DNA from: Candidatus Methanomethylophilaceae archaeon
GTDB taxonomy: Archaea > Thermoplasmatota > Thermoplasmata > Methanomassiliicoccales > Methanomethylophilaceae
NCBI GenBank assembly: GCA_944321985.1
Contig: CALUNK010000136.1
Span: 1 to 56,593 of the forward strand
Reading direction: 5' to 3'
Length of the DNA: 56,593 nucleotides
Each line of letters opens with the position of its first letter. Position 1 is the first letter of the stretch. A model generated the notes under the pieces. The model was given only the letters and a program-made list of their open reading frames with translations, searched no databases and was not told the DNA's origin. Positions 1-21,300 of the stretch are shown piece after piece. A program made the translations under genes and the position numbers.

Positions 1-178
1 ACGAGATCACGGTGTCGGCGCGGAACACGACCGTCCGCCCGTCGCACCTCGGCCTCCCCTCGCCGGGTTCGACCCTGGTGTCCAGGGACAGCACCGCCCT
101 GGTCAGGAAGCGCATGTCGAGGCACAGCCTGCTGGCCGCGGCGGAGACGATGTCGTTGGCGACCCCCACCTTGTCCAT
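1..178 (-). CDS. Partial gene, N-terminus of a DUF2201-like (VWA-associated metallopeptidase-like) protein
   Basis: The reading frame begins with ATG at 178 on the minus strand and runs off the left edge. The visible 59 residues start MDKVGVANDIVSAAASRLCL and continue with a stretch in which ...MRFLTRAVLSLDTRVEPG precedes a CDGRTVVF segment. This helix-rich start followed by a 'DGR-x-hydrophobic' strand resembles the N-terminus of putative metallopeptidases of the DUF2201 family, which normally sit next to MoxR-type ATPases. A GAGG stretch lies just upstream of the ATG. It overlaps the end of the MazF-like gene by 76 bases, which is long for an operon overlap. Family assignment rests on a short piece and is tentative. 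Confidence 0.5.
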   Translation of the reverse strand, partial: MDKVGVANDIVSAAASRLCLDMRFLTRAVLSLDTRVEPGEGRPRCDGRTVVFRADTVIS

Positions 179-561
179 GTCCTGCCTCGGTAGTCCCCGC
201 GGCGGTACATGCGGGTGTCCTTCGTCCTGCTCTCGAAGATGGCGCGCACCATCTCGGAGTCGTCGTGGCTCAGCTCCCCCAGCCTGTAGTTGAAGCTGGA
301 CGCCCGGAGCTTGAACGGGCGGTCGGTGCGCACATGGGAGGTCCTGTCCAGCATGACCTCGTAGGGGTCCATGAGCCTGATGTCGGTCTCCGGGTGGTGC
401 GGGTGGGAGGTGACCATGTACACGGTGAAGTCCTCTCCCCTCCTCTCCAGCACGATGACGGGGCGGTTCTTCGCCCCCGACCTGTCGTCGAAGTAGACGT
501 TGGCGTTCCAGACCTCCATCGGCCTGGGGTTCCCGGTCTGCGTCTGGTTCCGGAGCTTCAT
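103..561 (-). CDS. PemK/MazF-family toxin-like protein
   Basis: This 152-residue protein has the opening layout of MazF/PemK endoribonucleases: an early strand with MEVWNANVYFDD, the near-invariant KNRPVIVLE motif around residues 31-40, a TVYMVTSHPH strand with the T/S-S residues, and a later 'S-x-V-R-T-D' segment (about residues 75-82) followed by RLGELSHDD. In the family these form the dimeric RNA-cleaving fold and the strand carrying the Arg and Thr/Ser active-site residues. No antitoxin gene is visible upstream; the next feature on that side is a tRNA. The last 40 residues overlap another gene start and look low in family similarity, so the natural C-terminus may be different. Solitary PemK-like proteins are common, so active toxin function is not assured. 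Confidence 0.68.
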   Translation of the reverse strand: MKLRNQTQTGNPRPMEVWNANVYFDDRSGAKNRPVIVLERRGEDFTVYMVTSHPHHPETDIRLMDPYEVMLDRTSHVRTDRPFKLRASSFNYRLGELSHDDSEMVRAIFESRTKDTRMYRRGDYRGRTWTRWGSPTTSSPPRPAGCASTCAS

Positions 562-669: not shown

Positions 670-743
670 GGGCAAGTAGATCAGCCCGGTAGATCGCTGC
701 CTTCGCAAGGCAGAAGTCGCGAGTTCGAATCTCGCCTTGTCCA
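670..743 (+). tRNA. tRNA-Ala (anticodon CGC)
   Basis: A full cloverleaf can be drawn. Acceptor stem 670-676 (GGGCAAG) pairs with 736-742 (CTTGTCC) and contains the G3:U70 wobble that marks alanine tRNAs. The D stem is GATC/GATC (679-682 with 692-695). The anticodon stem CTGCC/GGCAG (697-701 with 709-713) holds a loop with anticodon CGC at 704-706. The T stem GCGAG/CTCGC (719-723 with 731-735) has loop TTCGAAT. Discriminator A is at 743 and CCA is encoded at 744-746. No intron is seen. The 3' end faces a decayed tyrosine recombinase, so it is a likely integration site. Confidence 0.96.
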
Positions 744-782
744 CCATTCCCTTCTGACTCACCCTTGTCGATTACCATAGTT

Positions 783-1400
783 TTAAACAAAGAGTAAAAC
801 GGTCGACTTGTTCCTCAGTCGTTCCTGTGCCTCCTTCCGATGCCCTCCTCGTAGTTTCTTTCCATCGATCATCCTCGTCGGATTGTCCGCGATGAACTCC
901 AAAGTCGTTTGGATGTTCTCTTGGCGCAAGAACTCCCCTACGTCCTCGATGGGCATTCAGGAGTTCTTCAGGATGGTCGCGTGCGACCGCCTGAAGGTGT
1001 GAATGGAGAACCTTATGCCCAGCTCCTGAGAGCCGGATAATCCGGTTCCCGAGGCTCTTGTGGCTGTACGGTGGGGCGATGACGTTCGTTTTCCAGTTGT
1101 GGAGCATGAGATTTTCCGGAACTGGATCTCCGGATGCATTTTCAGATGCCCTTCGACCATCGCGTTCCTTTGAGACATCCATCCATCGATTAGGCTCTGT
1201 GTGTCGTCATGATGGTGAATCCTGGCGAACTCCCCCTCCAAGTGTCCCTTCCCATAGGACGTGAATCCATGGGTTGCGCAGTCCCGACAGCTTCAGGTTC
1301 GCAGTCTTCTCGTATCTGAGACCCGTTATGCCTGCCAGATAGACGATCAGCTTGTCCACGTCTCCGGCGTAGGATGACCCGCAGGCCCCGCAGCACCTAC
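783..1400 (-). pseudogene. Decayed tyrosine recombinase (integrase)
   Basis: Pieces of an integrase catalytic domain occur in order on the minus strand but in different frames. One piece, near 1375-1270, has LIVYLAGITGLRYEKTANLK, containing the first catalytic Arg (TGLRxEK). A second, near 1010-960, has SIHTFRRSHATIL, the His-x-x-Arg box. A third reads FLRQENIQTTLEFIADNP, the position where the nucleophilic Tyr normally falls; I see only Phe there. The frame changes at a run of five G near 1233, shifts again between the Arg and His boxes, and an in-frame TGA follows the His box near 957. The gene ends at TAA 783-785, 37 bases past the encoded CCA of the tRNA. This is the usual arrangement for an element integrated at a tRNA 3' end. 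It cannot make a working recombinase as written. Confidence 0.75.
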
Positions 1401-2045
1401 GATGCACTCCCGATCTCAATATTAAAATTAAGATTCGATGAGACATTGAAGGGAATAGGAGAGATACGGACCGATGAGACTTGCAGTAAGAAATGGAAGA
1501 TGATGATTGATTCCGGTATATTCTTCCCTGTTGGTGATGATGAATGCAGGATCGATGGGATCATCTGGTGAATCTTATGATCAAGTTTCACAAAGACATA
1601 ATGTATGACGGAGAGGCGGCTACGAGAACAAATCGTTGATTCAGAATCTCTTGAAAAGGCATGTCGATGTGAATCAATCTATTCATTATGATAGGTAAAC
1701 AACATTTTCATTATAACAAACAAAGGATGTGTTTATTAGAGAAGATCTCAACTACTCCAGCTCTTATCGTTATCGGAATTATTCTTTATTGATTTACTTT
1801 AAGAATAAAACATAAACTTGGAGAATGAGCACAAGAAAACGAACGGGCACGATCTATTTCTATTATTAAGAATTTGAATATGTATTTTACAAAAACCGAG
1901 TGAATTTCTTTAAAAAACTAGAATCTTCTGATTGTAAATACTACAAGTCGTCTGAATCAAATATAAAATGTTGTGCTTATGATTTATAATTATACAATGT
2001 TTGAACCAAAACTTATCAAAGTACACAAGCACTGCTGTTGAATAT
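1401..2045. other. AT-rich stretch without a supported gene
   Basis: Base composition falls sharply at about 1410 and stays AT-rich. Short open frames here (for example 1374-1571) have no coding character or recognisable motif. I see no RNA gene or repeat. It reads as the left margin of the AT-rich island, lying next to the decayed integrase. Confidence 0.5.
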
Positions 2046-3317
2046 TTACGTGTGGTGTATGTTTCTCCTTGATTTTATATTATGATACTTGGCTGAGAAC
2101 TTAGCTACTTCTCCTTCCCATATAGGCTGGTTTTTTTTCTTTTTGATTTTTTCTATTCCCTTGGGGATCGTCCCTCCGAGTTCAAGATAAACACGATATA
2201 GGCAATAAGATATCAATGGCGCAAGCATCAAAATAATCATATTGTTCAACCTTATCCCATCGAGGTATACAGACTCTATGGCTTTTGGATCTAAATTAGG
2301 CTCTTCGAATGGGAATAATGATTCTTCATGCCAGAATAGATTACTCCATCCCCGAGGATCATCAATACCTAAGTAGAAACAATATACCTCCTGAGCTGTA
2401 CAATCTTCTCCTAGGCAATCCATTGCCGATTTAAACATAGGTTCACCAGAAGTGAAAACATAGATGGTTGTAATGTTCAATGCAATTCTCATCGGAGTCC
2501 AATCCTGAACAGGCTTCCTTTCATGCACATTTTGTAGACCGTTTATAAGACTTATAACTGCAGGTATCAACCATTCTGGATTTGATTCTTTCAACCTTTC
2601 TACAAGGCATAAGGTTGATGTTACCAAATCATTTTTTCTAATCCTGTATTTGTACTGTTTACCATTATGCTTGTTCACAAAAACAATGTCATTTCCTTCA
2701 AAATACACATTCATATGCCTTAGAGCATGCCTTATGTGAACCGGAATCGGTCTGCTATCGTTATAGTCTGGATCTTTAGGAAACAGTTGATTAAGATCAG
2801 TAAGGAGTTTATTTGCCTCTTCATTTTTGTAGGAATGGCCCATGCCTGCAAGACAAATGATTGACAAACCTACCTCACACATTTCATAATCATAGTTGGT
2901 TGCCCATGGGCGGGTTGTAAATGTCTTGAATAGAAGTGATTTCAATTCTTCACTCTATTTGTATTTAGGCTTCCAAAGTATCGGGTCATCCTTTTCTCTA
3001 CGTACATGTGCAGAAAACCACATTTGCAGAAAATCTTCGATTGTTCCACAAATTTTGTATCTTTTTAAATGAACTTCTATTATTTTAACAAGGTCTAGTA
3101 CAGATGCAGGATCATTGTAAACTCCTATATTCATCATTCTGAATTCTTTCAGATAATCTTTTCCATATGGACATTTAATCTTGTCTAGAATCAACTCAAG
3201 GGTTGTGAATACATCCTCGATAGATGTCAAATCAATGGTTGATTCAGAATTATCGTTCAATCCGGTATGACATGTTCCGGTTGTTTCAAGCGTTTTTGTT
3301 ATGTTATTTCTGTTCAT
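2046..3317 (-). CDS. HEPN-like protein with an in-frame amber codon (possible pyrrolysine protein)
   Basis: Two open frames on the minus strand, 3317-2958 and 2945-2046, are in the same frame and are separated only by TAG at 2955-2957. Read through, they give one 423-residue protein with the amber residue at position 121. The second part has no ATG near its start, only TTG at 2945 with no Shine-Dalgarno sequence, which argues against a separate gene. The N-terminal part ends ...DDPILWKPKYK and continues SEELKSLLFKTFTTRPW. A segment HIRHALRHMNVYFEGNDIVF (second part, about residues 70-90) resembles the R-x4-H motif of HEPN RNases and the 'RN-A-x-A-H' strand of HEPN-type plasmid proteins. One hydrophobic helix lies near the C-terminus. 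I do not recognise the family beyond that. It lies in a defense island, upstream of RloA/RloB on the same strand orientation. Confidence 0.6.
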
Positions 3318-3425: not shown

Positions 3426-3959
3426 TTACTTCTCCTCCAATATCAGCTCAGCAATAGTATGCATACAAGTGGAGTTGAGTTTGCTATAGCATTCCATAGG
3501 ATCCCCCGAAGGCAATCTCTTATGAGAACGTGTTATTGCATCAGTTGCTGTTTCTTTAGTGATTAAACTTTTCAATCCCTCTGCTTTAATGTATTTTCTT
3601 CCAAGCAGTTTTGACAGTTCCTTTTCATACAAGTCTTCAGTATCTAGACGCATTGAAGGTTCCTCAAAATGAAGTAGCAGCCAGTATTCAAAACATAGAT
3701 TTGATACCAATACCAATACATTTTTTTTCTTGGCCATAGTAATTGCCTCCTCCATATCTTCCTTCGATATGGTATCACAATCGAATAAAACTGCACGAAC
3801 ATCTGATGGCATCAAACCTTCACGTGATGATAGTTTGACACATTCTGCCACTATGTCAACAGCCTTCTTTTTATTGGTCACCTTTACCTTCATGGAAACA
3901 TTTGGATTGAGCCTGTGAAGACGCTCAAGATATACCTTTTCGGATGATCCCTCAACCAC
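3426..3959 (-). CDS. rloB: RloB-like protein (AbiLii-type)
   Basis: The protein carries the RloB layout: VVEGSSEKVYLERL at the start, then AVLFDCDTISKEDMEEAI with the acidic D-x-D pair, then LVSNLCFEYWLLLHF, which matches the family 'SNP-x-FE-W-LLLHF' signature. RloB has a Toprim-like nuclease fold and works with an SMC-like ATPase partner, RloA or AbiLi. That partner is the adjacent upstream gene, 55 bases away. The start given is GTG at 3959, the first standard start. However, the frame is open up to 4025 and encodes a basic stretch of the form R-K-T-G-S-R-K-P-L-R-T-V-Y-S before the GTG. That stretch is typical of true RloB N-termini, yet it contains no ATG, GTG or TTG. Confidence 0.8.
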   Translation of the reverse strand: MVEGSSEKVYLERLHRLNPNVSMKVKVTNKKKAVDIVAECVKLSSREGLMPSDVRAVLFDCDTISKEDMEEAITMAKKKNVLVLVSNLCFEYWLLLHFEEPSMRLDTEDLYEKELSKLLGRKYIKAEGLKSLITKETATDAITRSHKRLPSGDPMECYSKLNSTCMHTIAELILEEK

Positions 3960-4014: not shown

Positions 4015-5280
4015 TTATTCGAGATTCAACCACCCCTCATCAATAATGAGCGGCCTCCCACCAAACTTTCCAAGCGTGAAACCTTTGCGTGGATCGTAGC
4101 TCTTACGTATGTTGAAGTCCGCCAATGAGTATAGCTCTGCAACCTGATTGGTACGATTCTTGGTTGTAATGTAAATCTGATCTCTTCTGAGAAGGCTATC
4201 TGTGTCCATTAGAAGCTGATTATGTGTGTTGAAAATCAGCTGTGCTCCCCTCTTGTTTCTGTTTCCAGAAAACAGCTCCACTATCCACCTGCAGAGATCA
4301 TTGTCAAGATATGAACCGAACTCATCTATGGCCAACACTCCGCCAGAACGGAGTGTACTGATAACAGGCCCCATTATGCATATCATTCTAATTGTTCCAC
4401 TTGACTCCATTACATATGGGAACGTGCGATCCGTATCGGTAACACCTTCTGTACTGACCTTATGACTCATACTCAGCTGCAGTTGATTTATCTTCTGACT
4501 GCCTGTGGCCATCATGAATCCAATAATCTGTGGGGGCACCGTACCTTCCAATTCTGAAACCTTCATCTCACGGACCGAACCGTTGAGATCGTCAATACCG
4601 AAATCTGCAACAAGCATCGCCTCCACAACAAGACTCTTAAATTCAGGGTCGCGCTCCATCTCGGCAACAGTCGAGTTCAGAAGTGTGTTCATGTCTCCCG
4701 ATAAGACGGTAACCAAGGACATGGCTTCTGCCACACCACGACATACTTCATGGTTGAATTGCGCAGCCACCGAGAGGAAGGTGGAGTTCCTACCGACCAT
4801 TCCAGTAAGATTTTTGAGTTTTACTTTTGATCCCCCTGTTGAACAACTGAATTTGCTACCATTACGGGTGAATACTTTTGTCCGTCTCTCATTAGGATAA
4901 TAATACAGAGACTCGGAAATCACTTCTTGTGCTGTGTAAGATAGATTGTAATCATAAAGTACATTATCATGGTAGAAATGCACTCCCATTGATGTGGGTG
5001 CAGTCTTGGTCTCAGGAGAGAGTCTGAATGGATTGTATGGCATAGGAACATTTACCGGAAGAGGAAACCTCATAAGATTCGATAAGAGTCCTAGTGCGTT
5101 CACAACACACGACTTTCCTGAAGCATTTGATCCAAATATTGCTATCGATGATACAGTCAACTTTCCATCAGGTGTTTGGATCAGATTCTCAGATGTATCT
5201 TTCAGTTTCGTTGCTCTGAAATCCAGAACAATCTCATCTTTGAATGGACCGAAGTTTTGTAGACGGAACTCCGATATCAT
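4015..5280 (-). CDS. rloA: RloA / AbiLi-like AAA ATPase
   Basis: This 421-residue ATPase opens MISEFRLQNFGPFKDEIVLD, the usual start of RecF/SMC-like AAA proteins of defense systems. Walker A is FGSNASGKS near residues 49-57. A late LAIDEFGSYLD supplies the Walker B acidic pair, followed by AQLIFNTHNQLLMD with the His switch. The C-terminus has the sensor region DQIYITTKN that is common in AAA_15/AAA_21 proteins. The next gene downstream is RloB, so the pair matches the RloA-RloB or AbiL abortive-infection architecture: the ATPase is thought to gate a toxic Toprim partner. It is transcribed divergently from a winged-helix gene across a 102-base AT-rich gap. Confidence 0.85.
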   Translation of the reverse strand: MISEFRLQNFGPFKDEIVLDFRATKLKDTSENLIQTPDGKLTVSSIAIFGSNASGKSCVVNALGLLSNLMRFPLPVNVPMPYNPFRLSPETKTAPTSMGVHFYHDNVLYDYNLSYTAQEVISESLYYYPNERRTKVFTRNGSKFSCSTGGSKVKLKNLTGMVGRNSTFLSVAAQFNHEVCRGVAEAMSLVTVLSGDMNTLLNSTVAEMERDPEFKSLVVEAMLVADFGIDDLNGSVREMKVSELEGTVPPQIIGFMMATGSQKINQLQLSMSHKVSTEGVTDTDRTFPYVMESSGTIRMICIMGPVISTLRSGGVLAIDEFGSYLDNDLCRWIVELFSGNRNKRGAQLIFNTHNQLLMDTDSLLRRDQIYITTKNRTNQVAELYSLADFNIRKSYDPRKGFTLGKFGGRPLIIDEGWLNLE

Positions 5281-5769: not shown

Positions 5770-6517
5770 CAGATGAAATCCGCAATGTTTCTGACTACAA
5801 TAAAATCCACATAAATCCAGAAAAGGACTATTCCTGTTATTGCCCGAAATGTAGAACAATGAGCTATGGTCAATTTCAGCGTTTTGGTAATAAAAGCGAA
5901 CTTGGCATTATTACGGGCGAATTGAAATTACGTCTCGGAGATATTCCAAATCTACTATTGGATCTATATCTCAATTCATATGATGGCAGCTCTCTTGTAT
6001 GTGTACACACATGTAGGCAAGTCACAATAAACGTTTTTGATCAGACATACAATAGATGGAAAACCGACACTAACTTTCGTGTATTCAACCGCCTTGCAGT
6101 ATGATACTTCCTGTGTTCCGGAAGGAATCAACTACTACATGGGGCAGGCTTTCAAGTCCAAATCTGGGTGCATACAGTGCAGTGATGGCGATGTACTGTT
6201 CTACCCTGGAATTCCTTCTCTACGAAAATGGATTCGATGAAAACAGACTGGTTGACAAGATCAAATCCTTCAAAGATAACCCACTCGCTTGGGCGACCAG
6301 CCTCAGCTCACAATTCATGGATGTTATTAAGGATCTCGGAAACAATTCCGTACATCCGAACGGCGGAGACATATCCGAGCAGGAGAAGTTCGATTTCGAA
6401 ATGCTGGAGACTGTAGAGGAAACTATGAACGAGCTCATCGAAAGGGCGTACATACTTCCAAAGAGGGAGAAAGACCGTCTCCATGTTCTGAGTAATGCCA
6501 GTAGAAAAACTAATTGA
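5766..6517 (+). pseudogene. Broken DUF4145-like gene (zinc ribbon plus HEPN-type domain)
   Basis: Three frames in series encode one diverged copy of the intact gene at 7947-8714. Frame 1 (to about 6040) has the zinc-ribbon start YSCYCPKCRTMSYGQF. Frame 2 (about 6037-6165) has DGKPTLTFVYSTALQYDTSC and EGINYYMGQAFKSKS. Frame 3 (about 6168-6517) has GAYSAVMAMYCSTLEFLLY and IKDLGNNSVHPNGGD, the DUF4145 'GN-x-x-VH' helix. The same segments occur in order in the intact copy (INYYMAQAFKSRS, GANSAAMAMYRSALEWLL, LRLLGNNAVHVNDGD). Lesions lie near 6015-6037 and 6162-6168. Its end overlaps the TIR gene start by 23 bases. Real decay or assembly errors are both possible. Confidence 0.75.
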
Positions 6518-7346
6518 AATTCCGGTCGTGGTTCAAGTGTCGATAAAGATTTCAGAGCACATCCAGAATGGAGAAACTCTCTACAAAGAAACAATCGATG
6601 AGATCTGGAAAATATGCGGCGGAAAGTTCGATTACGATTACAGAAACATCAACAACCAAATGTCCATAGGGAACCTGAACTCCAGGTTCAGGGCGTGGGC
6701 CAGAGTCTCCATGGACATATTCAAAGAAAGATGTGATGTGAATGATTTGGACAACCTTTCCTACGAGTACGAAAAAGTACTGTTTGCATTAAGTCCGGAT
6801 TATTTCAGTAACGATCCAGACCGTGAGTTTGAGGGGCCTGTTCTTCCCCTTGTAATAAGCGGGTTCTCAGCACTGATTGGAGAACTCAAAGGGATAAGGG
6901 GGTCCGCCCTTGTTCTGAACAAAGGCGGTGACAGGGTGTTCATCGTCCATGGACGGGATGACCTTCTCCGCGATTCCGTCAGGGATTATGTGGAGGCAAT
7001 GGAGCTAGAACCGGTTATTCTCAAGGACGAGGTCAACGAGGGCAGGGTACTATTCGAGAAGTTCATCGAGGAATCGGACGATGCAGGCTTCGCGATCATC
7101 TTGATGACCGCCGATGACTACGGGGGGCTGAAAGGTTCCGAGTCCAGTCCCCGCGCGAGACAGAACGTGGTCTTCGAGTACGGATACTTCGTTGGAAAGC
7201 TGGGAAGGAAGAACATTTGCGTCATCATGGATTCGGGAATTGATTGTCCCACCGATCTTTCAGGCGTTGTCAGAATCAACTCTTCGGACTGGAAATCCGA
7301 TCTTCGCAGAGAGCTCAGGAACTGGAGCGAAAACCGGCTAGTTTGA
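6495..7346 (+). CDS. CAP12/PCTIR-type TIR-domain protein (PF10137-like nucleotide-binding)
   Basis: The C-terminal half is a clear TIR-like domain of the CAP12/Pycsar type. It has GDRVFIVHGRDDLLRDSVRD (about residues 145-164), LEPVILKDEVNEG, FAIILMTADDYGG, then RARQNVVFEYGYFVGKLGRK with the expected catalytic Glu in VFEYG, and IDCPTDLSGVVRI. Enzymes of this family cleave NAD+ when activated, as the killing arm of CBASS, Pycsar or stand-alone systems. The N-terminal 140 residues are helical and of no family I know. No cyclase gene is adjacent, so the trigger is unknown. The DUF4145-like genes on both sides are candidate partners. Start ATG at 6495 overlaps the broken DUF4145 copy. Confidence 0.8.
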   Translation: MPVEKLIEIPVVVQVSIKISEHIQNGETLYKETIDEIWKICGGKFDYDYRNINNQMSIGNLNSRFRAWARVSMDIFKERCDVNDLDNLSYEYEKVLFALSPDYFSNDPDREFEGPVLPLVISGFSALIGELKGIRGSALVLNKGGDRVFIVHGRDDLLRDSVRDYVEAMELEPVILKDEVNEGRVLFEKFIEESDDAGFAIILMTADDYGGLKGSESSPRARQNVVFEYGYFVGKLGRKNICVIMDSGIDCPTDLSGVVRINSSDWKSDLRRELRNWSENRLV

Positions 7347-7946: not shown

Positions 7947-8714
7947 ATGAGAGGAATCATACGTAATCTGTCTGATTTTGACGAAGTCATAAAGAATAAT
8001 TTGAAAAACGTGGCATGTTTTTGTCCTAAATGTAAAATGATGTGCTATGGCGAATTAGAATTTTTGTATACTGACGAGATACGTGGATTATCCATAAATC
8101 CTCAATCTAAACATGAAAGTATTTATAAACACACCTGTGCACAATGTGAGAATGAGATCTTTCTGATTAAACATCCTGTAGACGGACAGAGTTCATTGAC
8201 ATTCGTATACAATGCTGAAATACAATACGATTGGTCCTGCGTACCTGATGGAATTAATTACTACATGGCGCAAGCCTTCAAATCCAGGTCAGTCGGTGCA
8301 AACAGCGCAGCAATGGCCATGTACCGGTCCGCCCTTGAATGGTTATTGTTCTCTCTGGGATTCAAAGAAAAGGATCTGAACATTAGAATAGATAAATTCG
8401 GAGAGTCGGAATATAGTGAAAAGATCGGAACCGAGTTCATGGACATACTTCGTCTTTTGGGCAACAATGCTGTTCATGTTAACGATGGTGATCTGTCTCT
8501 GCAAAAATCATTTGATGATGATCTGTTGAATTCAACAGAGGAACTGTTGAACGAATTGATTAGTCTGATATTCATAGGTCCTGATGAACATAAGAAACGT
8601 GTAGAAAAAATGAAATCCGGACTGACAGAGGCACAGTTAAAACGGTATCAGAAAGAGTATGAATCTCCAGGTCCAAAAGTAAGGCCTGTGATAACCATTG
8701 ATGATGACCACTAA
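7947..8714 (+). CDS. DUF4145 protein with N-terminal zinc ribbon
   Basis: This 255-residue protein has a four-Cys zinc ribbon at its start (CFCPKCKMMCYG near residues 26-37 and HTCAQCENEIF near 70-80). A linker with LTFVYNAEIQYDWSCVPDGI follows, then the DUF4145 all-helical domain: ANSAAMAMYRSALEWLL, then LRLLGNNAVHVNDGD with the conserved G-N-x-x-x-H, and a C-terminal ELLNELISLIFI helix. DUF4145 proteins share a HEPN-type fold and occur as accessory or nuclease-like parts of restriction and abortive systems. A frameshifted paralog lies at 5766-6517, and a TIR gene lies between the two copies. Confidence 0.75.
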   Translation: MRGIIRNLSDFDEVIKNNLKNVACFCPKCKMMCYGELEFLYTDEIRGLSINPQSKHESIYKHTCAQCENEIFLIKHPVDGQSSLTFVYNAEIQYDWSCVPDGINYYMAQAFKSRSVGANSAAMAMYRSALEWLLFSLGFKEKDLNIRIDKFGESEYSEKIGTEFMDILRLLGNNAVHVNDGDLSLQKSFDDDLLNSTEELLNELISLIFIGPDEHKKRVEKMKSGLTEAQLKRYQKEYESPGPKVRPVITIDDDH

Positions 8715-14977: not shown

Positions 14978-15524
14978 GACTGAACATCGGATTGCTTTCT
15001 CTAAATACTTTCTTTGTAAGAGCATATAGTCCGCTCGGGTCAATGGAACAGGAAGCTTCGTCTCTCCCCATGGGCATGTGTCGTGTTTGGAACGGAAATC
15101 CGTCGCAGGAGTGGAGATTGAAATCGTCACACTGCACGGGATGTCTGTCGGAGATGTGTTCTGAGGCGGTTCTCCGGCGATGTCCGGCCTTTGCACATTC
15201 TCTGAAATGTCGACTGCATCCAGGTATTATGTGCAGCGTCTGGTAGACGGATCGTACGGAATCGTCAATCCGGATGTTCGCTGAGCATGGGAGACATACG
15301 TTCGATCGGGACATTTTTTGAGAGAGTCGATCGATCAACGGGATTCTCATCGTCATCCGATTGCTGTTTCGTACAGTGTATTCAGCTTTTCGAAGTCCGG
15401 GGGCAGCTCTTCGTCGATGTCCCGCGTCCGGGCAGGGGTAATGTGCGTCACCGGCATTCCCCCATCCACCGCAGCAGGGCGGAGGCCCGGGTGGGGGAGG
15501 AGGGGGATCACCCCCTCCAGGGTT

Positions 15525-16979
15525 TCAACGGCTCATCAGGTAGGTGAGGACGCCCTTGCTGTCGGATTCCGCAGCGAGCTCCAGCGCGTCCTTCCCCTCG
15601 GAGTTCCTGAACGACAGGTCGGGCTCGCAGAAGTCGTACATGAGGCGGATCAGGTCCAGGCCCTCGTCGTGGTACAGGGAGGATGCGTACATGATGGCTG
15701 ACATCCCCACGGAGTCCCTGGCGTCGCAGTCCGCTCCCAGCTCCAGCAGCGTGGACACGATGTTCTCTGAATCCATGCCGGAGACGGTGCAGGCGCGTAT
15801 GAGCGGGGTCATCCCCGTGGAGGCGCGGGACGCTATGTCCGCCCCCATGGACACAAGCTTCTCGAACGCGATCGTCCTCACGGACTTCCCGTCGGATGTC
15901 CCGCCCAGCCTTTCGTTCCCGGCCACGAAGCACATCGCCGTCCCCTCTTCGTCCCCGACGGGGAGGTCCGGCGACCCCTGTGCCTTCAGGATCCTCTCGA
16001 GCATCCTGATGTACGCTCCAGAGCTCCTGTCGTTTCCGCCGGTGCCGACCAGGGACTGGAGGGACCTGAGGAGGTAGTAGAGGGCGGTCCTCCCATCGGA
16101 ACCGCGGGAGTACGCGGCGTTTGCTCCGCCGTCCAGCAGGGCGTTGATGGAATCCTCGGCTACCATTTTGCAGGCGATCATTAGCGGGGTCATGCCCTGG
16201 AACGAGTTCTCCTCGTCCAGAGTCTCTTCGGGATCGGCGCCCGAGGACAGCAGCGCGGCGACGGCCTCGGAATCGTTGACCATGACCGCCTGCGCCAGAC
16301 TCATGCCTCCGGAGACGTCGCTGCTGTCCCCGTTCAGGAACGCGGAGGTCTTCTTGATCCTGTTCGAGATGGCGAAGTCCACCGCCTTGCGGCCAATCTT
16401 CGTCTCCGCATCCGGATCTATGCCGCAGCCCACAAGCCATTCCGCCATCTGGCGGCACATCTCGTCCTTCTCCGCGAACTCCTTCGGATCCCTCTCGTAG
16501 GTGTAGTCGTACCTCTGGGCCGCTTCGCAGAGCATGTGGAGGGCGTTCATCCCCGTGCTCTCGTCGGTCGAATCGCATCTGATCTTCATCTTGCCGATGA
16601 CCTCTATCATCGGGTAGTTGTGCATGTACGCGGCTATGTGGTAGAAGCACCTGCCCTGGTCGTCCCTCCTGCCAGGAGGGCATTTGTGGGAGAGCAGGAT
16701 CTCGGTGCACTCGTACATCTCCGACCTCCTCTTCTCCCAGCTCTGGGATGCCAGGAGGTGGAGGGGGGTGCGTCCGTACTCGTCGGTCATCCCGGCCCTG
16801 AATCCACGGTCCAGCAGGATCCTCAGCACCTCGGGGTCCACCATGTCCGCCGCCAGGTGTACGGCGGTCTTCCCGTGAGGGCCCATGTCCGAGGGGTCTA
16901 TGGTGGATGCGATGGAGACGATCACATCACGCGGTCTGTCGTAGCTGTAATAGGCCGATTCCAGTTCTTCGAATTTCAT
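15525..16979 (-). CDS. Ankyrin-repeat protein
   Basis: This 484-residue protein starts at ATG 16979 (MKFEELESAYYSYDRPRDV) and is built of ankyrin repeats. Clear ones read GKTAVHLAADMVDPEVLRIL, GRTPLHLLASQS, GMNALHMLCEAAQRY, GMTPLMIACKMVAEDSINAL, GRTALYYLLRSLQSL, GMTPLIRACTVSGMD and MSAIMYASSLYHDEGLDLI. There is no signal peptide or membrane helix. The ATG overlaps the stop of the upstream gene (ATGA), so both are translated from one mRNA. Ankyrin proteins recur in polymorphic-toxin immunity arrays. The neighbours here carry other such domains, which suggests toxin neutralisation by protein binding. Confidence 0.85.
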   Translation of the reverse strand: MKFEELESAYYSYDRPRDVIVSIASTIDPSDMGPHGKTAVHLAADMVDPEVLRILLDRGFRAGMTDEYGRTPLHLLASQSWEKRRSEMYECTEILLSHKCPPGRRDDQGRCFYHIAAYMHNYPMIEVIGKMKIRCDSTDESTGMNALHMLCEAAQRYDYTYERDPKEFAEKDEMCRQMAEWLVGCGIDPDAETKIGRKAVDFAISNRIKKTSAFLNGDSSDVSGGMSLAQAVMVNDSEAVAALLSSGADPEETLDEENSFQGMTPLMIACKMVAEDSINALLDGGANAAYSRGSDGRTALYYLLRSLQSLVGTGGNDRSSGAYIRMLERILKAQGSPDLPVGDEEGTAMCFVAGNERLGGTSDGKSVRTIAFEKLVSMGADIASRASTGMTPLIRACTVSGMDSENIVSTLLELGADCDARDSVGMSAIMYASSLYHDEGLDLIRLMYDFCEPDLSFRNSEGKDALELAAESDSKGVLTYLMSR

Positions 16980-18034
16980 GATATCGCGCTCACCCAGGGG
17001 AAGTCCTTCCACTCGCCCTCGGTCAGGAGATGCTCGACTGCAAACATAAGCCCAGCGGCGTTCTCGTAGCATGCGTCAGGTCCATAGGGGCACTTCCAGA
17101 ACATGCTTCCGAAGATGTACGACTGCGCGAAGGAGGTCCATGACTCGAAGGCGTCTATGCATCCGTCCGCTATCTGGTCGAGCACGTCCCATGCCTCGTC
17201 CTCGGTGATGAATCCGACGAAGTACCTCCAGCGTGTGACGTTGGCCGCCCTTCCGAGGTCCCATCCGCGAAGCATCATCGGCCCGTACCGGACGGCATAG
17301 GCCTCGGTGAAGGCGAACCTCGAGTCCGAGACCGCGATGTCGTCGTCATCCATGTCCTCGCCATGGAGGTCCTGAGCAGACCCGCCGTTTGCGATCACCT
17401 CGAGGTTGTTGGCGTAGTCCATCGAGTGGCCGCTTGCAATCAGGTATCTCAGGGTGTCGATGAGGCTCTCCCTGTCCTCAACCCCCCAGTAGTTCGAGAG
17501 CAGGGACCTGATCAGGTCCAGGCTGTCCTCGTCCCTTGGCTCCACATCCAGCCCGTCCAGCCTGTGGTCGTTGAGGGTGGAGAGTATCCCCGTGAGGAGG
17601 ATCTCGAACCTGCGCTTCCTCTCGGGGTCGGCAGGCTCGGGCTGCACCTCGGGCAGCTGGGCAAGGGAGGAGACGATCGACTCTATGTCGCCGTATCCGA
17701 ACTGGGACGGTTCCATCGCCCCCATGACGGACTCGGTGAGGGTCTCCTCCTCATCTCCTCCGAGCATCTGCGACATCTGTTCATCGTCGTATCCCATCTG
17801 CTGCATCACCATCCTCGCCTGCGCTTCGGGGTCGACGAATCCGCTCCCGTCTGCGGCGCCCATCATCTGGGTCAGCATCTGTATCTGCATCTGCAGGCTC
17901 TGGTCGATCTGCGAGCACATCTGCTCGACCATAGCAGGGTCGGAGGTGTACATCTGCCTGAACATGTTCTTCTGCGTCTCTGCCTGTGCCTTAATCATCT
18001 CAATCTGCATCTGGATTGGGTCCATGTCTGCCAT
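16976..18034 (-). CDS. DUF1266-containing protein with Met/Gln-rich N-terminus
   Basis: Starting at ATG 18034 (MADMDPIQMQIEMIKAQAET), the first 120 residues are a Met- and Gln-rich coiled helix. A central acidic linker follows. The C-terminal 170 residues fit DUF1266: AFTEAYAVRYGPMMLRGWDL, GRAANVTRWRYFVGFITEDE, and AFESWTSFAQSYIFGSMFW with the typical 'W-DLGR' and 'SW-x-x-F-x-x-SY-x-x-G' signatures. The upstream possible extension (to 18220) has no coding character. The stop overlaps the next gene in ATGA. DUF1266 proteins are of unknown biochemistry and appear with other immunity-like domains. The gene is divergent from the giant gene at 18318. Confidence 0.78.
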   Translation of the reverse strand: MADMDPIQMQIEMIKAQAETQKNMFRQMYTSDPAMVEQMCSQIDQSLQMQIQMLTQMMGAADGSGFVDPEAQARMVMQQMGYDDEQMSQMLGGDEEETLTESVMGAMEPSQFGYGDIESIVSSLAQLPEVQPEPADPERKRRFEILLTGILSTLNDHRLDGLDVEPRDEDSLDLIRSLLSNYWGVEDRESLIDTLRYLIASGHSMDYANNLEVIANGGSAQDLHGEDMDDDDIAVSDSRFAFTEAYAVRYGPMMLRGWDLGRAANVTRWRYFVGFITEDEAWDVLDQIADGCIDAFESWTSFAQSYIFGSMFWKCPYGPDACYENAAGLMFAVEHLLTEGEWKDFPWVSAIS

Positions 18035-18205
18035 GGTCAGGTGATGGCGATGCTTGTTATTAAACTTACATACCGATTCATCATTTTGGACTTTAAAAAT
18101 TTCAGAAGCAATTCCCAAAAACGGCCGATTCCCGCCACAAATCGAGTCATTTTTAATCGCTGTCATCCCGAATCGAGTGGTCGGTACCTCAAGTATTCGA
18201 GATGG

Positions 18206-18216
18206 ATATATAAAAA
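18206..18216 (+). promoter_or_regulatory. TATA box in divergent promoter region
   Basis: ATATATAAAAA lies in the 283-base gap between the DUF1266 gene (leftward) and the large rightward operon. It predicts a start near 18240 and a leader of about 75 bases before ATG 18318, which has AAGGAT just upstream. Confidence 0.45.
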
Positions 18217-18317
18217 CCAAATCAAACTAAAAGTTTTTATTAACTGCAACGGATATACGATACAAACGGTACGACCGTCTCGGGGCGCCTGTGTCCGGCA
18301 GGTTTCGTCAAGGATCA

Positions 18318-21300
18318 ATGGAGAGTTTGATGATGGATTTGGAAGGTCTGCTGAGGCAGTGCCAGGACTGGCACGAGAGCCAGGATTATGAAAGGATAGT
18401 CGAGGCGCTCGAAGGGGTCCCGCCAGGACAGCGCACGACGGAAGTCGACATGGAGCTGGCCAGGGCGTACAACAACCTGGGGACTCAGGAAAACGGCAAC
18501 GAGGCCGATTCCCGGAGGTTGTTGAGAAAGGCCCTGGGGATCATGGAGCAGCATGAGGCCGAGCTCTCAGACGACTACAGCTGGAACTTCCGCATGGGCT
18601 ACTCCCTATTCTTCCTAGAGAGGGAGGGGGAGGCGCTCCCTCACTTCGGGAAGGCCCTGGAACTGCATCCCGGGGACGATCCGAAGTACAACACCAGGGA
18701 GGAGATCCAGACACTGATCGACTCTTGCAGGGAGAGCATGTCGCTCCCGATGTTCGAAACGACGTTCAGGAACAGGGTCATCCGGGCGTGGGAGGAGTTC
18801 GAGAGGGAGGAGGCGGAGATCCGTAGGATGATGGACTCCGACAGGAGGGACGAGTACTCCGATGAGCTGATTCGGAGGATCCAGGACATCCTCGAGATGG
18901 CTTTGGACGACCCGACGTTCGAGTTCGGGATCGACGATGGGAAGCACGACCTCGTGCTCGTGACCCAGGGTGACAAGGTCCGGCTGTTCGAGTACGTCTA
19001 CTTCAGGGACCACGCCCCTGGATCCGTACTGGAGAACTGGAAGATAACTGTCGGACGCCCTCCCAGGCCCGACTTCCATCTGCGCGCCTTCGACCTCGAC
19101 GTCTGCGGCGACGATGTGGAGGCATGGGTCGAGAGGACGGAGGAGGACCGCGTATCCCTCAGGGTATGTTGCGACAAGGTGCAGGATCCGATGGACGATG
19201 AGGACAGAGTCTGGTGGATGCTGTTCACGATCGTCGACAGCGTAATCGGCGAGGTCGCCAACATGAGGCACATAGACAGCTTCGAGGTGGTCGACCATCC
19301 CCCAGAGGGCCAACCCGTCAAGCTGAGCGACCTGCCTAAGGCCATCGAGGACATGGGCATCGTGCTGACCAACGACGCGGAATCCTTCCTGCAGAGGTAC
19401 ACGGTGTACAAGGCGGACCCCGACGAGGAATCCGACGGTCCGTGGCGCATCGACATCCTGTCCGGATCCAACTGCTGCCCTCCCATCATCAACGAGTACT
19501 ACTCCGGCGAGAGGAGGTGCGTCGATACCCTCCATGCCGACGGCGCCGTCGCAGGGTACCTCGCCTACTCCCTCGACATCTTCGACGGTGAGGACAGGAG
19601 CGACAGGATATTCGACTTCCGCGACAGCCTCGAGGGTGCCCTGATGGACAAGGCCGGGGAGGATGCCCTCGCCGTGATCGGAGGGGCCACAGGCCTGCAC
19701 TACGGATACCTGGACTTCATAGCATGGGACCTGCCGTCGGTTCTCAATGCCGCCCAGGATTTCCTCGCGGATTCCGGCGTCTCGAAGGCATTCTTCCGTG
19801 TGTTCGCCACGGATGTCCCCACCTGCATCATAGTCAACAACAGCGATTGGGAGGGGGACTCGATGCTCGGCCCCATGGACATAGCTACACTCGAGTCATT
19901 CATAGGGGAGACACAGGGGCAGTTCGGCGGGGCTCTCGCCTATCTTCTCGATTTCATCGACCGTGGAACGTCGGAGGGGAGATTCACCGAGGAGCAGGCT
20001 CAGCAGGACCTACAGATCGCGCTGTGGTACTCTTACGCATGCATCAACATGCATCAGTACGAGTATTACTACAAGGCAGCGCAGTGGATGCCATCGTCGA
20101 TGTGCAATGCCTCAGGGTGCGGGACGTGGTTCTATCGCTACGTCTGCGCGCTGATGTACTGCGGTAGGTTGGAGAAGGCCCTGGAGATGGCGGAAAGGGG
20201 GACCGAGGAGGAGCCGGACTATCCGTGGGCGTGGCTGCTGCTCGGGGAGCTCCGCGCCCATTTCGGAGACACGGTCGGTGCACTTCATGCTGTAGATCGC
20301 GGCCTGGAGATCGTTCCTGGGGACTACGAGTTCGAGACACTCCGCAGGGAGATCAACGAGGGGGCGACCCTGGATGTCATGTTGAGGCATTGGATAGATC
20401 CGGAACTGGATGCGGATCTCCAGGCGGGGAAGGAGGACGAGGATTCGGAGGCGCTGGACAGGGCAATCCGTTGCGTGGTCCTCGACAATGCCGGGATGGA
20501 GAGGTTCATGGGCATCTTCGGTCCGGAGCCCAGGGACTGGACCGCAGACGATCCGTACTGCTCCTTTAGCCGCGACATGATGGGCCGCAGTATCCGGATT
20601 GAATTCAGGATGAACCGTGCCGGGCTCTCCAAGATGGACGAGAGCTTCCTTGAGAACCTGAGGGGATGGTTCGACGAGGGCCGCTGGCTCAGGTATCCGT
20701 TCGGAAAACCAGACGACTCGCCGGACATACTCCTGGACACGGTCATCGTCTTCCTTGACGGGACCGCTGCCCTCTCTTATCGCGACCCGGAGGGTAGCGA
20801 CGACATCATCCTCGGACTAGACCCTATGGGACATCCGTCGCCTCCTGTGATTCCGGACAACGATCCGGAGGGAGACGACAGTGATCGTTCCGAAGATGGC
20901 GAGGACGACGAGACCGGCGTGTTCGCAGGGTTCGTGCTCATGTCCAGGGTATCCTGGAGCAAGAGGCGGCTCATCCGCGATCTGAAGGAGATGTGGGGAA
21001 TCGAGGCCGAGGAGGACGATGACGACTCCAATGACGACGCCCTCGTATTCGAGGTCGACGGAAGGGTGGCGGCCGTGAGCCTGATGAGGGGACCGATTCC
21101 CGAGGGGGAGGCGGAGGCCAACGCCGAGAACAACTACATGTGGCCGGAGGCCGTGGAAATCGCCAAGGAGCACAGGGCACACCTCCTAGTGTTCGTCGGG
21201 GCGAAGGAAGATGACGATCTGATCGAGAGGGGGAAGCTGTTCGTGAAGCTCCTCTCGTCGTGCTGCCGTCAGGAGAATGTCTCAGGCGTGTACACCAGCG

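What the first reader, a model, noticed from the sequence alone, without database searches (positions are those of the whole stretch)
2046..3317. Two adjacent frames joined by a single amber codon in a HEPN-like defense-island gene
TAG at 2955-2957 is the only interruption of a 423-residue frame. The downstream part lacks a credible start. A mobile, AT-rich defense gene that needs pyrrolysine would limit its transfer to Pyl-decoding hosts. That would be a form of host locking.
Basis: partly seen in the sequence, partly recalled or inferred. Interest (0 to 1): 0.72.

Follow-up and report, generated by a model that had tools for sequence, protein, structure and literature searches.

The report
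UAG-interrupted accessory gene in a methanogen
A defence-island gene in a gut-type methanogen has a UAG "stop" codon in its middle that this microbe most likely reads as the amino acid pyrrolysine; such genes are already known in close relatives, and nothing suggests the codon locks the gene to its host.

Summary
It has 423 codons and one TAG, at 2957-2955, codon 121. The host is a Methanomethylophilaceae genome with tRNA-Pyl, pylS, pylB, pylC and pylD, and with methylamine methyltransferases carrying in-frame TAG. In a 796-kb sample of that genome, 15 coding-like frames are interrupted by a single TAG, against 4 by TAA and 4 by TGA, although TAG ends only 20 of 612 coding-like ORFs. UAG is therefore generally read through here. 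One such gene, a chloride channel, has its TAG inside one Pfam domain; 11 of 11 homologues in relatives lack TAG there.

The focal protein has one detectable homologue, a single 404-aa uninterrupted frame in a pylS-bearing congener. Only the core (residues 139-221, with a conserved Rx4H motif) is alignable; the N-terminal part is not demonstrably homologous. Best reading: UAG read as pyrrolysine gives one 423-aa HEPN-like accessory protein; the UAG looks sporadic. Host locking is not supported. Published genomes of the order already list in-frame amber codons in Cas1, Cas3, Fic and insertion sequences. A TTG restart or a nonsense mutation is not excluded.

The parts
2046..3317 (-). Joined frame, 423 codons plus TAA, read through one TAG
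2958..3317 (-). N-terminal part, 120 codons, ATG start without a Shine-Dalgarno match of 4 or more bases
2955..2957 (-). TAG codon 121, proposed pyrrolysine
2046..2954 (-). Part downstream of the TAG, 302 sense codons plus TAA
2943..2945 (-). TTG codon 125, the only possible restart between the TAG and the conserved core (rival reading)
2655..2903 (-). Conserved core, residues 139-221, the only part similar to the homologue
   Evidence: model
2715..2732 (-). RHALRH, Rx4H motif, residues 196-201, RHAVMH in the homologue
   Evidence: motif definition from PMC3710099 passages
3426..3959 (-). Upstream neighbour, RloB/AbiLii-like
4015..5280 (-). Upstream neighbour, AAA ATPase, AbiLi-like
670..746 (+). 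tRNA-Ala (CGC) near the AT-rich region; no second copy of its 3' end found in the window

Best explanation
This is one gene for a 423-aa accessory protein with an HEPN-like core, in a defence island of a pyrrolysine-decoding Methanomethylophilaceae archaeon. The UAG at codon 121 is read by tRNA-Pyl as pyrrolysine; incomplete suppression would also release a 120-aa N-terminal fragment. Shown: the frame, the complete Pyl machinery, the genome-wide excess of TAG-interrupted coding frames, and an uninterrupted homologue of similar length. Inferred: that UAG is decoded in this mRNA, that the UAG arose recently from a sense codon in a tolerant inter-helix stretch, and that the protein is an Rx4H RNase acting in defence, possibly with the AbiL-like pair just upstream.
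For: Pyl machinery: PylS, tRNA with CTA anticodon read by eye just upstream of pylS, PylC and PylD over NCBIfam cut-offs, PylB over cut-off. Methyltransferases with in-frame TAG: two mtmB-type frames and an mtbB, a second Dimeth_Pyl frame, MTTB. Single-stop coding-like frames in 796 kb: 15 TAG, 4 TAA, 4 TGA, while coding-like ORFs >=100 aa end in TAG 20, TAA 61, TGA 531 of 612 (approximate Fisher p 8e-17 against TGA and 2e-5 against TAA). Inside the window 1 of 47 ORFs >=120 aa ends in TAG, the focal one. Control gene: a chloride channel with TAG at codon 218 inside Voltage_CLC (residues 106-444); 11 of 11 homologues lack TAG and the site is T, P, R, A or a gap. Homologue: one 404-aa frame without stop; 34% over residues 142-221, E 8e-6; segment lengths 138/83/202 against 120/84/200.
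Against: Only one homologue; outside the core neither flank scores above shuffles (N part to residue 138 p 0.57-0.66, C part p 0.77-0.82), so homology across the TAG is not shown. TAG does end some genes here: a Dus gene ends in TAG and its listed extension runs antisense to another gene. The coding score of the downstream part is barely positive (0.012). A TTG restart lies four codons after the TAG. The sequence is a metagenome assembly seen once, so a base error cannot be excluded. No downstream RNA structure beyond chance (z -0.48), though none is obligatory according to PMC4153887.
Confidence: 0.72

Rival explanations
1. A sense-to-TAG nonsense mutation or an assembly base error in a decaying or unused island gene: the reading frame is intact by recent ancestry but no functional full-length protein matters.
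For: The gene is near broken coding-like frames by tRNA-Ala (a TGA-interrupted one at 783-1241), in AT-rich accessory DNA; the family is nearly absent from relatives (2 of 102 family genomes, own included); a single copy in an assembly.
Against: In this genome single-stop interruptions are strongly skewed to TAG (15) over TAA (4) and TGA (4), which decay or random error would not give; a TAG in a Pyl-decoding cell need not inactivate.
Confidence: 0.17
2. Two separate proteins: a 120-aa product ending at the TAG and a 299-aa product restarting at TTG 2945 by translational coupling.
For: TTG four codons after the TAG with a 4-base Shine-Dalgarno match GTGA at 4 nt, and the region similar to the homologue (from residue 139) lies wholly downstream. 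Same-frame neighbouring genes are common.
Against: The homologue carries about 120 aa in the same frame before the core; no independent relative of the N-terminal part was found in searches with the joined protein or its alignment; TAG is rarely a terminator in this genome.
Confidence: 0.11

Closest known systems
Predicted pyrrolysine proteins outside the methylamine methyltransferases in Methanomassiliicoccales (Borrel 2014, PMC4153887, section 12 read; ISO4-H5 genome, PMC5011839, passages seen)
   Same: In-frame TAG in accessory genes of a pyl-bearing genome with few TAG stops; published lists include Cas1, Fic and a prophage-type helicase in Ca. M. alvus (16 predicted besides the methyltransferases) and Cas3 and 10 insertion-sequence elements among 46 genes in ISO4-H5; half of the M. 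alvus set have TAG-free homologues.
   Different: The family here is not in those lists as far as the passages show, and its homology across the TAG is weaker than their criterion (one BLASTP hit shared by both sides).
HEPN superfamily (Rx4-6H) RNases of defence and toxin systems (PMC3710099, passages seen)
   Same: Conserved R-H-A-x-x-H in both homologues, predicted at the end of the third helix of the core
   Different: A predicted stranded insert follows the motif; no profile or fold match was obtained.
AbiL (AbiLi AAA ATPase plus AbiLii/RloB)
   Same: Both genes stand immediately upstream on the same strand
   Different: The focal gene matches no AbiL model, and its homologue in G076 has no such neighbours that I could recognise among the ORFs listed (read by eye).

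Membership tests
Pyrrolysine-containing protein | Host encodes tRNA-Pyl, PylS, PylB, PylC, PylD | tested here: met
   (tRNA read by eye; ARAGORN did not call it)
Pyrrolysine-containing protein | Single in-frame UAG with coding sequence on both sides | tested here: met
   scores 0.069 and 0.012, the latter marginal
Pyrrolysine-containing protein | Both sides of the UAG match one homologous protein | tested here: inconclusive
   Core after the UAG matches a single-frame homologue; the part before it does not align above chance
Pyrrolysine-containing protein | Pyrrolysine found in the protein | not testable with these tools
   needs mass spectrometry
HEPN superfamily | Rx4-6H motif, polar residue after R | tested here: met
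   RHALRH / RHAVMH, the R, H, A and final H identical in both sequences; definition in PMC3710099 passages
HEPN superfamily | All-helical bundle with the motif at the end of helix 3 | tested here: inconclusive
   Core model pLDDT 72, pTM 0.72: helices 20-40, 42-54, 67-76 (motif 72-77), strands, helix 104-121; no PDB match with E <= 0.001 and best VIA Z 3.9 to an unrelated entry
HEPN superfamily | Profile match to a known HEPN family | tested here: inconclusive
   None in Pfam, PADLOC, PHROGs or NCBIfam
AbiL system | AbiLi and AbiLii proteins | tested here: not met
   The focal protein matches neither; its two upstream neighbours do

The most novel reading that the evidence does not exclude
Accessory and defence genes in these archaea collect UAG codons often enough that the mobile gene pool of the clade becomes confined to pyrrolysine decoders, and the output of such defence genes varies with pyrrolysine supply, for example with methylamine growth, through the ratio of full-length protein to UAG-terminated fragment.
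Probability: 0.1. Interest if true: 0.55.

Novelty: new member of a known kind. Interest (0 to 1): 0.28.

Why it matters
It adds a likely UAG-containing accessory gene, and a genome-wide count, to the evidence that members of this methanogen family read UAG as sense in ordinary genes. Standard gene callers split such genes, so defence proteins in these genomes are probably under-annotated. It does not by itself show selection for host restriction.

Tried and rejected
More homologues: searches of viral contigs, phages and plasmids, genome contigs (one locus, with the contig length and range of G076 C5), 102 family genomes and 400 class genomes gave only the one relative, so codon-by-codon conservation at the TAG could not be tested. 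Structure of the whole protein: pLDDT 38, not used. Fold searches of the core against PDB and viral models gave nothing usable; HEPN entries were not among the listed rows, which does not exclude the fold. Solved-structure sequence search: no hit. Downstream RNA element: no signal. Start-site analysis: Shine-Dalgarno matches are only modestly enriched at the first start codons in this genome (script ended early with an error), so they decide little. My first unfiltered stop-codon tally mixed in antisense ORFs and was replaced by the coding-filtered ones. In one search one of the 15 TAG frames (L016) is a true TAG stop followed by an antisense extension, and five are methyltransferases; leaving these six and the focal gene out, 8 remain. 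The Fisher tests compare joined frames with ORF counts that are not strictly nested, so they are rough. Papers: the searches with 'Pyl code' (no paper) and 'all TAG codons' (three papers that by title and abstract concern engineered code expansion) gave no paper on a natural full reassignment of amber in archaea in this library.

Full report
Observation. The frame lies on the minus strand, 3317 to 2046: 423 codons of which one is TAG, at 2957-2955 (codon 121), and TAA at the end. It stands 108 bases after an RloB-like gene (Pfam RloB E 7e-25; PADLOC AbiLii E 3e-17), itself after an AAA ATPase (PADLOC AbiLi E 2e-70), all on the same strand. G+C of the frame is 0.36, against 0.57 in a 414-kb sample of the genome and 0.50 in the window. 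The open stretch after the TAG is far longer than chance (0 of 3000 simulations). However, same-frame continuations also arise from neighbouring genes, so the question is what the TAG does.

Host. The genome (G000, 1.78 Mb, 141 contigs, 86% complete) is of the same genus as G076, whose matching contig has the length of one titled a Candidatus Methanomethylophilaceae archaeon. It has PylS over the curated cut-off, PylC and PylD, PylB and, directly upstream of pylS, a tRNA-like sequence with the CTA anticodon, which I recognised by eye from recall (ARAGORN with the bacterial setting did not call it). Two mtmB-type frames and an mtbB frame with in-frame TAG lie in the same cluster. mtmB is named from recall: no NCBIfam model matched these two frames; the mtbB frame matched TIGR02368.

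Is UAG read as sense in general? I used 42 stretches (796 kb: 40 stretches of up to 20 kb, one 14-kb pyl-cluster stretch and the window) with a codon model trained on long ORFs. Coding-like ORFs of at least 100 aa ended in TGA 531, TAA 61 and TAG 20 of 612. Frames in which exactly one stop separates two coding-like parts of at least 50 codons numbered 15 for TAG, 4 for TAA and 4 for TGA. Fisher tests, approximate, give p 8e-17 against TGA and 2e-5 against TAA; without the five methyltransferases, one false case and the focal gene, 8 TAG frames still give p 6e-9 against TGA. The pyl-cluster stretch was chosen because it holds pyl genes, so it adds three methyltransferase frames by design; the last test leaves them out.

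Who are the others? Besides five methyltransferases, they are a chloride channel, an OLD-like nuclease (AAA_15 plus TOPRIM) with TAG at codon 516, a DUF5677 protein, a radical SAM protein, a GHMP kinase, a frame with only a sub-threshold TPR match, and two without Pfam match. In two of these eight the Pfam domain spans the TAG: the chloride channel (TAG 218, domain 106-444) and DUF5677 (TAG 111, domain 66-226). The Dus gene (L016) is the false case, a genuine TAG stop. For the channel, 12 of 41 genomes searched held a match at E <= 1e-40, one of them the own genome; none of the other 11 has TAG inside the match (one has a TGA), and at the site they have T, P, R, A or a gap. TAG there is private and sits at an unconserved place.

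The focal family. In 102 genomes of the family and 400 of the class (own included in both), only one other genome (G076, same genus, PylS present) has a relative: a single 404-aa frame without stop. The similarity covers residues 139-221 (33-34%; shuffle z about 15). The N- and C-terminal flanks do not score above shuffles. The C-terminal flank lies in the same uninterrupted frame as the core and is just as diverged, so a missing N-terminal signal does not argue for two genes; but it does not argue for one either. The lengths of the three segments agree (138/83/202 against 120/84/200). I recognised no AbiL-like genes next to the relative (by eye), so a functional tie to AbiL is not supported beyond adjacency here.

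Function. The core carries RHALRH (RHAVMH in the relative), fitting the published Rx4-6H rule with a polar residue after R and the motif at the end of helix 3 (PMC3710099, passages). A core model (pLDDT 72, pTM 0.72) places the motif at the end of its third helix, not counting a short poorly modelled one at its start, followed by strands and another helix. No profile or fold match confirms HEPN. I take it as a probable HEPN-like RNase of an accessory or defence gene, at perhaps 60%. The same region holds a CAP12/Pycsar TIR effector gene (6495-7346) and a DUF4145 gene (7947-8714), which makes a defence setting credible.

Literature. Borrel 2014 (PMC4153887, section 12 read) predicts 16 such proteins in Ca. 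M. alvus besides the methyltransferases, including Cas1 and Fic, with TAG ending only 1.6% of genes, and argues that in-frame amber codons would be stable there. The ISO4-H5 genome paper (PMC5011839, passages) reports 46 genes with in-frame amber, including Cas3 and 10 insertion-sequence elements. The smacovirus paper (PMC6336856, passages) reports reduced amber stops in viruses thought to infect this order. So defence and mobile genes with in-frame UAG are already in print for this order.

Verdict. The TAG is real and most likely read as pyrrolysine in one protein (0.72). It is a new member of a known kind, apparently a sporadic, tolerated change. Host locking as an evolved device is unsupported.

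Noticed in passing
L019:2073-3470 (G000 C5): Chloride channel gene with TAG at codon 218 inside Voltage_CLC; 11 of 11 relatives' homologues lack TAG.
   Followed up: yes
L020:13140-14858, L026:933-1832, L058:13103-15223 and 15210-18863, L071:11542-12405, L032:16346-17233, L066:11583-12038: Further TAG-interrupted coding-like frames: OLD-like nuclease, DUF5677, a frame with a weak TPR match, radical SAM, GHMP kinase, and two unknowns.
   Followed up: partly
G000 C11 versus C14:11509-12525: pylB lies on a different contig from the tRNA-Pyl, pylS, pylC, pylD cluster, in which pylC follows pylS directly.
   Followed up: no
window 6495-7346 and 7947-8714: CAP12/Pycsar TIR-domain effector gene and a DUF4145 gene in the same region.
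   Followed up: no
window 783-1446: Broken coding-like frames beside tRNA-Ala (670-746), one interrupted by TGA (783-1241); they resemble a decayed integrase by eye, but Pfam gave no match for the three tested.
   Followed up: partly
window 103-561: PemK/MazF-like gene near the tRNA-Ala end of the window.
   Followed up: no
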